Positions 3,232 to 20,650 of a DNA stretch of 22,105 nucleotides are shown piece after piece; position 1 is the stretch's first letter; every line of letters starts with the position of its first letter. The notes beneath the pieces are model-generated. The model ran no database searches and was not told the DNA's origin. It saw only the letters and a program-made list of their open reading frames with translations. Position numbers and translations under genes: made by a program. This stretch comes from Treponema sp. (GTDB lineage Bacteria; Spirochaetota; Spirochaetia; Treponematales; Breznakiellaceae). The DNA lies in the NCBI GenBank assembly GCA_031288005.1, contig JAITSE010000023.1, positions 1 to 22,105 of the forward strand. The letters run 5' to 3'.

Positions 3232-3278
3232 ATTTTGGCCGCCCTGCGTTTGCGTAACAAACGCAGGGCGGCCAAAAT
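3232..3278. repeat. Perfect 21-bp inverted repeat after the SPOR gene
   Basis: Arms 3232-3252 and 3258-3278 are exact reverse complements (ATTTTGGCCGCC… paired with …GGCGGCCAAAAT) with the five-base loop CGTAA. It starts 31 bases after the SPOR-gene stop. No T-run follows, so it is not a classic intrinsic terminator, although it may stabilise or end the mRNA. A second small stem (3282-3286 with 3292-3296) follows at once. Confidence 0.85.
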
Positions 3279-3712: not shown

Positions 3713-3944
3713 ATTAAACCCTCAATACGAATCAACAACCCCGCCCTGAAATCGAAGCTGCGATGGGACCTCCGGTGCCGTGACGGGGTATGTTGTTCTT
3801 CACCGGTGGTTAGACTCGCAGAAACGCGGAAACATCGAAAACTTCGTTTCCGCGTTTCTGATGTTTCTGGAGGTTTAATACCCTGCCATAAATCTTCCCC
3901 ACGCAAGCTGGTTTTTGGGTATTAAATCCTTTGCTGCGAATAAA
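3713..3944 (+). repeat. Dispersed modular repeat, copy 1
   Basis: Contains all modules of the repeat. ATTAAACCCTCAATA (3713-3727) is identical to 15318-15332. CCCGCCCTGAAATCGAA (3740-3756) is identical to 8010-8026. GGGGTATGTTGTTCTTCA (3785-3802) is identical to 8035-8052. GGGTATTAAATCC… (3917-3944) is shared with 11546-11574 (inverted). It also carries a CACGCAAGC motif (3900-3907) like 9850 and 15298. No protein is encoded. Confidence 0.75.
3819..3860. repeat. 15-bp inverted repeat with expanded loop
   Basis: Arms 3819-3833 (CAGAAACGCGGAAAC) and 3846-3860 (GTTTCCGCGTTTCTG) are exact reverse complements around a 12-base loop. The inner part (GCGGAAAC … TTC GTTTCCGC) matches the triloop palindrome at 15492-15510 with extra bases inserted before TTC. 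It therefore looks like a member of the same palindrome family with an enlarged loop. Confidence 0.8.
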
Positions 3945-3951
3945 ATTTTGC

Positions 3952-7989: not shown

Positions 7990-8126
7990 AGAGTTGTTAA
8001 ATCAATAAGCCCGCCCTGAAATCGAACCCTCGATGGGGTATGTTGTTCTTCAGTGGCGGTTAGACTTGCATAAACTTCGTTTCTGAAGGTAATACCTTAA
8101 AGCGTAATTGCTTAGAGCTTGCTCCC
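7990..8126 (+). repeat. Dispersed modular repeat, copy 2
   Basis: Lies between the convergent acylphosphatase and the 505-codon gene. Shares CCCGCCCTGAAATCGAA (8010-8026) and GGGGTATGTTGTTCTTCA (8035-8052) exactly with copy 1, then GGTTAGACTTGCA (8058-8070), a short triloop palindrome AAAC-TTC-GTTT (8072-8082), GGTAATACCTTAAA and finally GAGCTTGCTCC (8116-8126), which recurs at 20587-20597. Confidence 0.75.
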
Positions 8127-9798: not shown

Positions 9799-9865
9799 GG
9801 GTATTAAAATTTCGCCGCAAATCAAGCGAGCCCGCCGCAGAGCCTCCCCCGCGCAAGCGGATTCT
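9799..9865 (+). repeat. Dispersed modular repeat, copy 3 (partial)
   Basis: GGGTATTAAAATTTCGCCGCAA (9799-9820) resembles the repeat end at 3917-3944 and 11546-11574. It is followed by GCCGCAGAGCCTCCCCCG (9834-9851), identical to 15281-15298, then GCAAGCGG with similar flanks in both. The surrounding 9720-9960 holds no gene. Confidence 0.65.
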
Positions 9866-9977
9866 GGAAACAACTGCCTCGATTAGTAATCGTCATGAAG
9901 AAATATCCCGCCCCATTACAGAAGTTAATGGGATTCTAATATGTATTAGGAAAAAATAAAAGGCGGAACGTCGCCCT

Positions 9978-10171
9978 GCAACCGCTGCGCGGTTGCTTTG
10001 GAGTTTTTAGCTCCTATGAGACCTTCGGTCTCCGGGCTTCTCCCGGGGGCCGGTTCTACGGGGAAAACATGCGGGGAGTTTTGCGGAATATCAAAAAGTT
10101 CTAAGAGACCCGCAGGGTCTCACATCCATAAAAGCCCGCAAAACTCCTTAGCAATTTGCGAAGCAAATTGC
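9978..10171. repeat. Cluster of short palindromic hairpins behind glgC
   Basis: In about 195 non-coding bases: GCAACCGC-TGC-GCGGTTGC (9978-9996), GGAG/CTCC (10000-10014), GAGACC-TTC-GGTCTC (10018-10032), CCGGG/CCCGG (10032-10046), a 12-bp outer stem (10075-10086 with 10136-10147) enclosing GAGACCC-GCA-GGGTCTC (10105-10121), and GCAATTTGC-GAA-GCAAATTGC (10151-10171). The three-base loops are all TNC or GNA, closed by C-G. The cluster starts 26 bases behind the glgC stop and may also end its transcript. Confidence 0.85.
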
Positions 10172-10196
10172 AGGCTTGCGGCGGGCGTAGACGCGG

Positions 10197-11468
10197 TTAT
10201 ATTACTGTTCCAGGATAGAGCACAGCATTTTTTGGAATAACGATGATCCCGTCCACGATGTAGTAGTGGCCATAGTTGCCTTCGCTGCGGTTAAGATCGT
10301 CTATACCTATGCGGCAGCCTTCGCCTATACAAGCGTTTTTGTCGATAATCGCGCCTTTAATAATGCTGCCCCTGCCTATGCCCACATTCGGCGCCCGTTT
10401 TTCGGCGTTTTGCTGTTTCTGCGCATTGGTCTCGTAGAAGTCGGCGCCCATACAGATAACTCCGTTAAGGCTTGCCCCGGATTCTATGATGGTTCTGACA
10501 CCGACTATGGAGTTGGAAATCGACGCGTTTGTGATGATGCACCCTTCCGCGGCAATGGACTGGTTCATGTTGCTGAAATTCATTTTTGATGGGGGAAGAT
10601 TCCTGATGTGGGTATAAATAGGTTTATTTTCCGCATAAAAATCGAATTTCGGCGTCAGACTGGTCAGATTAAGGTTGGCCTCGTAGAAATTTTTTATTGT
10701 ACCTATGTCTTCCCAATAACCATTAAAGACGTATGCGTTGACTTTTAGGCTGTTGATGGCCATGGGAATGATCTCTTTGCCGAAATCTGTACATTCATTG
10801 GCAAGGCAGCTTTCCATGGCTTCGGCGTTGAACACATAGATACCCATGGAAGCCAGGAATTCGTCCCCCCTGGATTTATCCTGCCGCAGTTCAGCGGGGG
10901 TCTTAAAATCGGCGATATCTTTTGTGGGGCCGGGTTTTTCCAAAAATTCAGTGATATTGTTATTTTTATTTACTTTGAGGATTCCAAGCTGGCTGGCGTC
11001 ATCACGGGAAACCGTCGTACAGGCGATAGAAATAGCCGCTTTGGATTCCCGATGCTTATTCAGAAAATCTTTTAAATCCATACGGTAGAGTTGGTCGCCG
11101 GAAAGGATCATGTAATACGATGGATTCTGGGTTCTAAAATGAATAAAATTTTTCCGTACCGCATCAGCGGTGCCTTCGTACCAGCCTGAATGGTCAAAAG
11201 TCTGTTCCGCCGCAAGTATTTCAACGAAACCCTTGGAAAAAGAATCGAAAATGTAGGTCTGAGACAAATGTAAATGCAGGGACGCTGAATTAAACTGCGT
11301 CAGTATGTATATTTGCCGGAGGTTTGCGTTTATACAGTTAGAAATAGGAATATCAACAAGCCGGTACTTTCCTCCAAAAGGGACAGCCGGCTTCGCTCTG
11401 GCTTGAGTTAAGGGAAATAAACGAGTTCCCTTGCCGCCGCCTAATACTATTGATAAAACTTCAGCCAT
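10197..11468 (-). CDS. glgC: Glucose-1-phosphate adenylyltransferase
   Basis: GlgC makes ADP-glucose from glucose-1-phosphate and ATP, the committed step of bacterial glycogen synthesis. The 423-residue length fits. Motifs in order: nucleotide loop GGGKGTRLFPLT (10-21) with AKPAVPFGGKYRL (25-37), GTADAV (99-104), SGDQLYRMD (123-131), EFLEKP (174-179), SMGIYVF (207-213) and YWEDIGTI, then a C-terminal left-handed beta-helix domain ending PGTVI. The sequence has the plant/cyanobacterial style (ASQLGILKV, NYGHYYIVDGIIVIPK), as do some spirochaete enzymes. Start ATG 11468 has AAGGAGG 7 bases upstream, and a good promoter is at 11502-11530. It stands alone; no glgA, glgB or glgP is in the window. 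Confidence 0.96.
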   Translation of the reverse strand: MAEVLSIVLGGGKGTRLFPLTQARAKPAVPFGGKYRLVDIPISNCINANLRQIYILTQFNSASLHLHLSQTYIFDSFSKGFVEILAAEQTFDHSGWYEGTADAVRKNFIHFRTQNPSYYMILSGDQLYRMDLKDFLNKHRESKAAISIACTTVSRDDASQLGILKVNKNNNITEFLEKPGPTKDIADFKTPAELRQDKSRGDEFLASMGIYVFNAEAMESCLANECTDFGKEIIPMAINSLKVNAYVFNGYWEDIGTIKNFYEANLNLTSLTPKFDFYAENKPIYTHIRNLPPSKMNFSNMNQSIAAEGCIITNASISNSIVGVRTIIESGASLNGVICMGADFYETNAQKQQNAEKRAPNVGIGRGSIIKGAIIDKNACIGEGCRIGIDDLNRSEGNYGHYYIVDGIIVIPKNAVLYPGTVI

Positions 11469-11545: not shown

Positions 11546-11690
11546 TTTATTTGCAGCGAAAGATTTAATACCCCGCCGAACCTTCGATTCGAGATCTGGG
11601 GCGGTTAAAAAATAAATATTAAATCCTGAGTGAAGCCGCCTTATAAGAACAGCATACCCCGTCCGCTTGCGGTGGTGTTCTTCATTTAGA
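11546..11690 (-). repeat. Dispersed modular repeat, copy 4 (inverted)
   Basis: Read on the minus strand it carries GGGGTATGCTGTTCTT (11660-11645; 15 of 16 with copies 1 and 2), then GGCGGGGTATTAAATC… to …CAAATAAA (11546-11574), closely matching 3917-3944. The other end contains CCGCTTGCGG (11663-11672). It fills the space between the divergent glgC and mrfA promoters. Confidence 0.7.
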
Positions 11691-15491: not shown

Positions 15492-15510
15492 GCGGAAACT
15501 TCGTTTCCGC
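15492..15510. repeat. Triloop palindrome between mrfB and fapA
   Basis: GCGGAAAC-TTC-GTTTCCGC: 8-bp perfect stem, TTC loop on plus and GAA on minus. It lies between the convergent mrfB and fapA genes. GTTTCC recurs at 15512-15517, 15521-15526 and 15543-15548. The rest of 15383-15604 has no recognisable feature. Confidence 0.8.
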
Positions 15511-20338: not shown

Positions 20339-20443
20339 AATATTCGAGATATGTCAAGACAGCGTATTGTTTATTGTATGTGGAGGACAGCGAACCTGCC
20401 GAGCCTCTGGTTTGATCACTACAGCGGTGTTAGTTGATTGAAA

Positions 20444-20535
20444 GGCGGGGTCCATACCCCGGAGATTGCCCTGGAAAATCTAAAATACATCGAAATGTTG
20501 TACAATAATTTTCGGATCGGGGTATGGATCCCGCC
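20444..20535. repeat. 92-base element flanked by 18-bp inverted repeats
   Basis: Left arm GGCGGGGTCCATACCCCG (20444-20461) matches the complement of the right arm 20518-20535 at 17 of 18 positions (one G-T). The 56-base interior is AT-rich and has a short internal ACAT/ATGT stem. It could be a small non-autonomous mobile element or a large RNA hairpin. Confidence 0.7.
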
Positions 20536-20611
20536 AGTATAATAAATTTTCTATCCAACGAAGATATCGGCAAGCACACTTGCTTCGAGCTTGCTCCTGG
20601 GTTCTTTGTTG

Positions 20612-20650
20612 GACCTGTTCATCGGAAACTGCGTTTCCGATGAACAGGTC
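20612..20650. repeat. 18-bp perfect hairpin with TGC triloop
   Basis: Arms 20612-20629 (GACCTGTTCATCGGAAAC) and 20633-20650 are exact complements with loop TGC (GCA on the minus strand). The inner CGGAAAC-TGC-GTTTCCG resembles the palindrome at 15492-15510 (GGAAAC-TTC-GTTTCC). It is the longest member of the triloop family here. Confidence 0.9.

What the first reader, a model, noticed from the sequence alone, without database searches (positions are those of the whole stretch)
9978..10171. A family of intergenic palindromes capped by C-(GNA)-G triloops
Seven perfect palindromes in the window's spacers have exactly three loop bases, and the loop is always TTC/GAA or TGC/GCA closed by a C-G pair: 8072-8082, 9978-9996, 10018-10032, 10105-10121, 10151-10171, 15492-15510 and 20612-20650; 3819-3860 is an expanded relative. 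The arms differ in sequence and length (4 to 18 bp), but the cap is constant. On one strand each is C-GNA-G, the triloop known to make exceptionally stable DNA mini-hairpins (GCGAAGC, present at 10158-10164). Constant cap with free arms suggests selection on, or creation through, single-stranded DNA hairpins: a REP-like element, a transposase or replication by-product, or a cruciform or protein-binding site. I know of no described family with this definition.
Basis: partly seen in the sequence, partly recalled or inferred. Interest (0 to 1): 0.72.

Follow-up and report, generated by a model that had tools for sequence, protein, structure and literature searches.

The report
Spirochaete hairpin repeats with constant tips
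Spaces between genes in some gut spirochaetes carry small scattered DNA repeats that fold into hairpins whose arms vary freely while staying paired and whose three-base tip keeps one very stable DNA pattern, which suggests that the folded DNA itself is what is maintained.

Summary
Six of six noncoding triloop palindromes (arm >=6) in the window are C-GNA-G. In relatives' loci chosen only by GlgC homology, 16 of 60 are, against 1.9 expected; in all 174 records examined, 44 of 103 (arm >=7) against 3.9, with every N found. The triloop excess is patchy: 28 of 41 in G009, 2 of 37 in Breznakiella homolactica, 0 of 12 in 200 kb of E. coli. The cap matches the published GNA/GNNA rule for very stable DNA mini-hairpins.

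The palindromes are parts of dispersed, REP-like double-hairpin elements; the four at 9978-10171 are two oppositely oriented copies of one. In G009 an element has 104 copies; in 58 read, hairpin A has a GNA cap in 51, while hairpin B has 41 distinct sequences in 57 copies, 47 of them perfect palindromes, between near-constant flanks. REP tags (1 of 63) and a local link to Y1 transposases are lacking; terminators and attC fit poorly.

Best reading: non-autonomous mobile elements selected as folded DNA. Mobility and the enzyme are inferred. Long-armed palindromes masked as coding also show some excess. New variant of a known kind.

The parts
9978..10032 (-). Copy 1 (degraded) of the local double-hairpin element: GAGACC-GAA-GGTCTC (10018-10032), GGAGctaaaaaCTCC (10000-10014), GCAACCGC-GCA-GCGGTTGC (9978-9996), then AGG
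   Evidence: Direct reading and coordinates; shares CTCC-nnn-GCAA..TTGC-AGG and GAGACC..GGTCTC with copy 2
10075..10171 (+). Copy 2 of the local double-hairpin element: outer hairpin GGAGTTTTGCGG (10075-10086) / CCGCAAAACTCC (10136-10147), nested hairpin GAGACCC-GCA-GGGTCTC (10105-10121) inside it, spacer, hairpin GCAATTTGC-GAA-GCAAATTGC (10151-10171)
   Evidence: relatives with a similar pair of hairpins and other arms or tips: L328/L368, L361, L362, L326, L369, L333/L370
3730..3944 (+). Copy of the widespread two-hairpin repeat (AATCAACAACCCCGCC .. GGGGTATGTTGTTCT .. GGTATTAAA .. GAATAAA) with the nested GAAAC palindrome 3819-3860
   Evidence: a copy from G003 used as query matches in 29 of 46 relatives' genomes at E<=0.001
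8000..8100 (+). Decayed copy of the same repeat, with AAAC-TTC-GTTT at 8072-8082 (right end approximate)
   Evidence: 86% identity over 44 bp and 93% over 27 bp to the copy at 3730
11546..11686 (-). Third copy of the same repeat, with an imperfect CGAATCGAAGGTTCG hairpin in its second stem
15492..15510 (-). GCGGAAAC-GAA-GTTTCCGC palindrome between convergent ORFs; arm related to 3819-3860 (GGAAAC units)
   Evidence: 91% over 33 bp to 3836-3867
20612..20650 (-). 18-bp perfect palindrome with GCA cap, GACCTGTTCATCGGAAAC-GCA-GTTTCCGATGAACAGGTC
9842..9865 (-). AGAATCCGC-TTGC-GCGGGGGAGGC hairpin, resembling AAGAACCCGC-TTC-GCGGGGGAGGC hairpins at the tips of repeat copies in relatives (complement C-GCAA-G)
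   Evidence: resemblance by eye

Best explanation
The palindromes are the structural parts of small, non-coding, dispersed hairpin elements (often two hairpins on a constant frame) of spirochaetes related to Treponema/Breznakiella. Shown: the elements occur in many copies; at matching positions the stems differ in sequence and length but stay paired; the tip is mostly C-GNA-G. Inferred: selection acts on the folded DNA strand. A C-G closed GNA tip with a sheared G.A pair lets the hairpin form easily in single-stranded or supercoiled DNA and resist nucleases, as in phage N4 early promoters. Also inferred: an unidentified enzyme acting on folded DNA copies or moves the elements, the arms are kept matched by intrastrand templating or fast compensatory change, and new hairpins are gained at the exposed tip, giving the nested palindromes.
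For: Cap excess: 16 of 60 against 1.9 in loci chosen only by GlgC homology, 5 of 10 against 0.3 in G003, 28 of 41 against 2.9 in G009; 44 of 103 against 3.9 overall at arm >=7. Fixed arms, free loop: ATTTGC-NNN-GCAAAT has a GNA cap at 13 of 27 sites in 46 genomes (my count's list; p 7e-6 against a uniform 12.5%; 7 of 21, p 0.01, if G014's seven sites are counted once). cGNNAg tetraloops 25 of 145 against 4.8, GNYA as enriched as GNRA. G009: 104 copies at <=2 mismatches, reversed-pattern control 0; 58 read: hairpin A cap GNA in 51 (N = C 35, G 12, A 2, T 2), hairpin B paired to within a loop of five in 47 of 56, against 380 of 3014 for swapped arms; 41 distinct B sequences of 57, linker identical in 57 of 58. 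No clear strand bias relative to genes (5 sense, 8 antisense). GNA or GNNA loops make stable, nuclease-resistant DNA hairpins (PMC4686876, passages). In N4 promoters the closing C:G and the loop's 5'G and 3'A are needed for hairpin extrusion (PMC4496689, passages).
Against: No mobilising enzyme was identified and no empty site was shown, so mobility rests on copy number. GNA hairpins are not concentrated at Y1 genes. The rule is not strict: hairpin B tips are varied; hairpin A has ANA in 4 and another loop in 1 of 58; AAA caps occur in relatives of the window element (L368, L369) and at 5 of the 27 fixed-arm sites. The triloop signal is weak or absent in G001, G002, B. homolactica, Gracilinema and G044. 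cGNNAg tetraloops are enriched also in B. homolactica (7 of 47 against 1.7) and barely present in G009 (1 of 11), so tetraloops may have another cause. ORF-masked long palindromes also show the cap. Flank identity upstream in G009 is partly selected, since exact-flank copies were listed and fetched first.
Confidence: 0.55

Rival explanations
1. By-product of replication: a nascent 3' end folds back through a C-GNA-G mini-hairpin, primes on itself and copies the upstream strand, so any sequence ending in CGNAG can become a perfect palindrome. The cap is constant because only it self-primes; no function.
For: Explains constant cap, arbitrary arms and perfect pairing at once. ORF-masked palindromes show an excess that grows with arm length (21 of 180 against 8.6 at arm >=7, 14 of 66 against 3.2 at arm >=8). 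Nested palindromes at tips.
Against: Many copies share constant flanks and frames (104 in G009), which fold-back alone does not disperse. The excess is patchy between relatives. At hairpin B the tips vary although most arms are perfect.
Confidence: 0.2
2. REP elements of a RAYT (TnpA_REP) system with an unusual loop.
For: Small, intergenic, multi-copy palindromes; perfect-stem REPs with 3-nt loops exist, and the loop's first G is critical in the S. maltophilia system (PMC8266576, passages). CGTC-tagged REPs are reported in Spirochaetes (PMC3733652, passages). Y1_Tnp hits in 14 of 18 relatives.
Against: GTAG at 0 and CGTC at 1 of 63 oriented GNA palindromes. No Y1 hit in G009 or G003 (draft MAGs). 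No enrichment at Y1 loci per noncoding base. 18 of 20 Y1 genes read lack the HUH motif by eye.
Confidence: 0.12
3. Transcription terminators or other RNA hairpins, with the cap chosen for RNA stability.
For: Convergent spacers somewhat over-represented (13 of 34 with both neighbours known, against 22% of spacer length). GNRA and CTTCGG loops are also enriched.
Against: A run of four T within 8 nt of the stem at no more than 3 of 63, counting both strands. 8 of 34 lie between divergent ORFs, and there is no sense-strand preference. GNYA tetraloops are as enriched as GNRA.
Confidence: 0.1
4. Integron attC sites, or chance and assembly artefact.
For: Some hairpins have flanks vaguely like attC (L028, L033; by eye).
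Against: No hit over the integron-integrase cut-off in 18 genomes, though 17 have sub-threshold matches, as do all 14 control genomes. A published survey found no integrons in T. azotonutricium or T. primitia (PMC3607928, passages). The same families occur on many contigs of several genomes.
Confidence: 0.03

Closest known systems
REP / BIME / REPIN elements (GTAG- and CGTC-tagged families)
   Same: Short intergenic palindromes, high copy, often paired, stems and loops variable between subfamilies; some with perfect stems and 3-nt loops (PMC3733652, PMC8266576, passages)
   Different: No GTAG/CGTC tag, loop rule GNA (many published GTAG-family loops fit TY or CMA), no linked TnpA_REP found, constant frame and linker around two hairpins with very variable stems
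Double-hairpin elements and repetitive hairpin-forming elements of mitochondria (Allomyces, recalled; sponges, PMC2800124, outline and section 22)
   Same: Adjacent hairpins dispersed in intergenic DNA; regarded as spreading within the genome
   Different: In sponges stems are conserved and loops vary; here the reverse: stems vary and the tip is mostly kept. Bacterial chromosome, not organelle
Phage N4 virion RNA polymerase promoters (PMC4496689, passages)
   Same: Short palindrome whose hairpin needs the closing C:G and 5'G/3'A of a triloop in order to extrude from supercoiled DNA
   Different: A phage promoter with specific stem contacts; no evidence of transcription starts here
d(GCGAAGC) mini-hairpins, GNA/GNNA loops (PMC4686876, passages)
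   Same: The same cap rule
   Different: Studied as oligonucleotides and aptamer parts, not as a genomic repeat family
Integron attC sites
   Same: Function as folded single-stranded DNA with variable terminal stems (recalled)
   Different: No attC boxes, cassette arrays or integron integrase demonstrated

Membership tests
REP (RAYT-mobilised) | Multi-copy intergenic palindromes of about 20-40 nt | tested here: met
   12 sites of one palindrome in G003; 104 copies in G009
REP (RAYT-mobilised) | GTAG or CGTC tag beside the stem | tested here: not met
   GTAG 0, CGTC 1 of 63 oriented GNA palindromes, 8 nt either side
REP (RAYT-mobilised) | Cognate TnpA_REP in the genome, associated with the repeats | tested here: not met
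   No Y1_Tnp hit in G009 and G003 (both draft MAGs, so not final); no local enrichment at 28 Y1 loci
REP (RAYT-mobilised) | Cleavage of the single-stranded hairpin by the transposase | not testable with these tools
   Needs a biochemical assay
Double-hairpin element (DHE) | Two hairpins on a constant frame, dispersed | tested here: met
   G009 element; local element; widespread two-hairpin repeat
Double-hairpin element (DHE) | Evidence of mobility (empty sites) | not tested
   Only one genome per species was at hand
DNA GNA/GNNA mini-hairpin | C-G closed loop GNA or GNNA with N free | tested here: met
   (a statistical rule with exceptions)
Rho-independent terminator | Stem followed by a T tract, at gene 3' ends, strand-consistent | tested here: not met
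   T4 at no more than 3 of 63; 8 of 34 in divergent spacers, no strand bias
Integron attC | Integron integrase in the genome | tested here: not met
   0 of 18 genomes over the TIGR02249 cut-off

The most novel reading that the evidence does not exclude
Gut spirochaetes host small double-hairpin DNA elements that spread as folded DNA through an unknown enzyme recognising a C-GNA-G tip, and each round of copying rewrites the stem: one arm is templated on the other, so the sequence becomes hypervariable while the pairing stays perfect. This would be a repeat whose heritable trait is a fold and a tip, not a sequence.
Probability: 0.25. Interest if true: 0.82.

Novelty: new variant of a known kind. 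Interest (0 to 1): 0.62.

Why it matters
A loop rule known from test-tube DNA (GNA/GNNA mini-hairpins) appears here as a strong genomic signature, which suggests that DNA hairpins form and matter in living cells. The elements give a natural experiment, dozens of stems on one near-identical frame, for asking how palindromes are made, kept perfect and extended, and a handle for finding an enzyme that works on folded DNA.

Tried and rejected
Y1/RAYT link: per base, Y1 loci looked richer in GNA hairpins (11 in 62.9 kb against 11 in 268.8 kb), but per noncoding base the difference vanished.

Terminators, attC: see rivals. Rfam had no match in the window at gathering thresholds. A plasmid search with the 9900-10200 spacer found nothing. 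A viral-contig scan with the neighbouring 505-aa protein found no relative.

Energy models: ViennaRNA RNA and DNA parameters give no bonus to GNA triloops, so they could not separate DNA from RNA.

Window palindromes in relatives: GGAAACTTCGTTTCC gave 6 sites in 3 of 7 genomes, in contexts unrelated to the window's copies. BLAST of 9960-10196 in 40 genomes passed E 0.001 in three only (G005, G012, G014). Of seven G014 stretches fetched, four (L361, L362, L365, L366) held the ATTTGC hairpin; L363, L364 and L367 did not. BLAST of window 3720-3945 in four genomes gave two weak hits.

Novelty searches: (PubMed Central open-licence papers; only the top rows were listed) showed no paper on GNA-capped genomic repeats or on such repeats in termite-gut treponemes. 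Paywalled literature was not seen.

Selection and rows dropped: one search used L001-L080, L087-L145 and L236-L275, without the window and without L081-L086 and L146-L235, and without five contigs whose middle 200 bases occur in another record. G009 was sampled because L032 was rich in the palindromes; ten of the twenty G003 stretches were chosen from contigs listed with the two-hairpin repeat (GNA 2 of 4 there, 3 of 6 in the other G003 stretches). Identical palindromes with identical 4-nt flanks were counted once (loop counts). The 58 G009 copies are those already held or fetched, of 104; the subtype with ATACTT after the flank (CTTTTGGC arms) is under-sampled, 2 read. One search's automatic parse gave 49 GNA caps in hairpin A; reading the centre of each insert gives 51, two copies having a wobble mismatch near the tip.

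Full report
What was checked. The window comes from a spirochaete whose GlgC is 93% identical to that of a Treponema MAG (L001) and 80-87% to 79 other loci of Treponema, Spirochaetaceae and Spirochaetia, among them Breznakiella homolactica. That most of these MAGs come from termite and cockroach guts is recalled from their series, not shown by a call. No genome is held for the window itself, so tests beyond the window use relatives.

The observation. Coordinates and sequences are as stated. In the window 6 of 6 noncoding triloop palindromes with arm >=6 have a C-GNA-G cap, against 0 of 5 under the ORF mask. 8072-8082 has 4-bp arms (3 of 64 triloop palindromes with arm 4 are of the class) and is not significant alone, but it sits in a copy of the same repeat as 3819-3860.

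Chance. The null is the frequency of each closed pentamer in the same noncoding DNA. The cleanest set is the relatives' loci picked only because they encode GlgC (L004-L080 less four that belong to separately counted genomes): 16 of 60 triloop palindromes (arm >=6) are C-GNA-G, expected 1.9, p 5e-11. In all 174 records (2.15 Mb, 194 kb noncoding) it is 54 of 176 against 6.6 at arm >=6 and 44 of 103 against 3.9 at arm >=7 (p 6e-35). That set includes G009 and G003, which I sampled because they looked rich, so its p value is inflated. Among caps seen at least four times, CGAAG, CGCAG, CGTAG and CGGAG are the four most enriched at arm >=7; C-ANA-G is a weaker second class (16 of 103). Under the ORF mask it is 36 of 596 against 28.6 (arm >=6), 21 of 180 against 8.6 (>=7) and 14 of 66 against 3.2 (>=8), so the excess is not confined to spacers, though the mask is crude; per kb the palindromes are about 20 times denser in noncoding DNA. 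Tetraloops: C-GNRA-G 12 against 2.5 and C-GNYA-G 13 against 2.3, of 145. With arms fixed as ATTTGC/GCAAAT and the loop free, 13 of 27 sites in 46 genomes have a GNA cap and 5 have AAA (counted from the list; p 7e-6 against a uniform 12.5%). Seven of the 13 are in one genome; counting those once leaves 7 of 21, p 0.01.

Where it holds. The triloop excess is patchy: G009 28 of 41 (2.9 expected), G003 5 of 10 (0.3), other relatives' loci 16 of 60 (1.9), G001 2 of 12 (0.5), G002 1 of 15 (0.6), B. homolactica 2 of 37 (1.5), Gracilinema 0 of 5, another Treponema MAG 0 of 9, E. coli 200 kb 0 of 12. Tetraloops do not follow the same map: cGNNAg is 7 of 47 against 1.7 in B. homolactica, 2 of 8 in Gracilinema, 2 of 15 in E. 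coli, but 1 of 11 in G009 (split into GNRA and GNYA). So the triloop signal behaves like lineages of repeats, while the tetraloop signal may have other causes.

What the palindromes belong to. Listing them with flanks shows sets with constant flanks but different, perfectly paired arms. Three cases matter. (a) In the window, 10075-10171 is a two-hairpin element: GGAGTTTTGCGG .. CCGCAAAACTCC enclosing GAGACCC-GCA-GGGTCTC, then GCAATTTGC-GAA-GCAAATTGC. 9978-10032 is a degraded, oppositely oriented copy with GAGACC-GAA-GGTCTC, GGAG..CTCC and GCAACCGC-GCA-GCGGTTGC. Relatives carry a similar pair of hairpins with altered arms and tips, for example GGAGTTTCAC-GAA-GTGAAACTCC TTA GGTAATTTGC-GAA-GCAAATTACC in L361 and GGAGTTTTGC-AAA-GCAAAACTCC in L368; in L326, L369 and the window the outer hairpin holds a further predicted hairpin at its tip. 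(b) 3730-3944, about 8000-8100 and 11546-11686 are copies of another two-hairpin repeat, matched in 29 of 46 relatives' genomes. (c) In G009 one element has 104 copies (reversed-pattern control 0): GGGATAGAGCGGAAATA [hairpin A] GCAGCGATAGCCCGG [hairpin B] TGCGCCC. In 58 copies read, the hairpin A insert has 23 forms including its edges and its cap is GNA in 51, cGNNAg in 2, ANA in 4, other in 1. Hairpin B has 41 distinct sequences in 57 copies, from TCCCCGCGAAGCGGGGA to TTTTTGCGTGCTTGCACGCAAAAA; 47 of 57 are perfect end to end, give or take one base at the foot, the other 10 being truncated, nested or mismatched; swapped arms pair in 380 of 3014 cases. The linker is identical in 57 of 58 and the right flank in 51 of 58 (each located by fuzzy search); the upstream flank is identical in all 58, but that is partly selected. 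Arm classes are partly linked: 6 of 7 copies with CTTTACC-type hairpin A have a TTTTT-type hairpin B, although TTTTT also occurs with other A types. So the element has subfamilies.

Mechanism. Shown: dispersal, stem turnover with pairing kept, tip mostly kept. Supported: a DNA-level constraint, because N is free in the triloop, which is the rule published for very stable, nuclease-resistant DNA mini-hairpins (GNA or GNNA; PMC4686876, passages read); because there is no consistent strand relative to genes (5 sense, 8 antisense); and because at most 3 of 63 have a T tract. That the RNA version of GCGAAGC is much less stable is recalled, not read. The closest functional precedent is the N4 early promoter, where the closing C:G and the 5'G and 3'A of a three-base loop are needed for extrusion from supercoiled DNA and a sheared G:A pair forms (PMC4496689, passages). 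Inferred: an enzyme acting on folded DNA spreads the elements; arms are kept matched by templating one on the other or by fast compensation (two hairpin A copies with a wobble mismatch, by eye, are possible intermediates); exposed tips take up new hairpins.

Known families. REPs are the nearest bacterial kind, but the tags are missing, G009 and G003 lack Y1 hits, and Y1 loci are not enriched per noncoding base. Many published GTAG-family loops fit TY or CMA, and CGTC-tagged REPs are reported in Spirochaetes (PMC3733652, passages). A 2025 REP survey covers Leptospira, Borrelia and Spirochaeta, and its main text does not contain 'Treponema' or 'GNA' (PMC12306157, term search). In a group 3 REP system the loop's first G is essential (PMC8266576, passages), so a loop-reading transposase is plausible. 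Mitochondrial hairpin elements share the layout, but in sponges the stems are conserved and the loops vary (PMC2800124, section 22). A 2026 survey of inverted repeats in 118,019 genomes has no occurrence of 'loop sequence', 'triloop' or 'GAA' in its main text (PMC13155455, term search). My paper searches, listed under Tried and rejected, showed nothing that describes this rule as a genomic repeat family.

Verdict. A real and strong signature, best read as new REP-like double-hairpin elements selected as folded DNA. Mobility and the enzyme are inferred. Interest 0.62.

Noticed in passing
L216-L227, L229, L231-L235 (Y1 loci of G001, G002, G005, G007, G008, G010, G014): A multi-copy RAYT-like protein family (35 Y1_Tnp matches in G008) in which the HUH motif appears replaced, by eye, in 18 of 20 genes read (DDWLxFYI-like in place of NHIHFLI in L230; L228 was read in another frame). 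Several copies lie between inverted GCTAAACTTGACCCACAA-like ends.
   Followed up: partly
window 3232-3278: Perfect 21-bp inverted repeat with a 5-base loop (CGTAA); its region has partial matches in L042 and L030.
   Followed up: no
window 20434-20566: 133-bp stretch 81% identical to L027 508-640, holding GCGGGGTCCATACCCC and GGGGTATGGATCCCGC; probably another dispersed repeat.
   Followed up: no
G037 contig 10, 8723-12010: Eight copies of GCGATAGCCCGGT, all on one strand, within 3.3 kb.
   Followed up: no
records examined: The 9-mer CTATCGACA occurs 31 times in noncoding DNA, in 31 records; possibly a conserved promoter element near glgC.
   Followed up: no
L318-L323 (G005, G006, G009, G015, G016, G046): Tyrosine recombinases in open frames of 419-511 aa that match the integron integrase model in two stretches below its cut-off, with a gap around model positions 178-230.
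   Followed up: no
L326, L365: Direct repeat arrays (AGAGAGGTCTCC- and GGATGCGCGGACGCACATAACTA-type units) beside the ATTTGC-GAA-GCAAAT hairpins.
   Followed up: no
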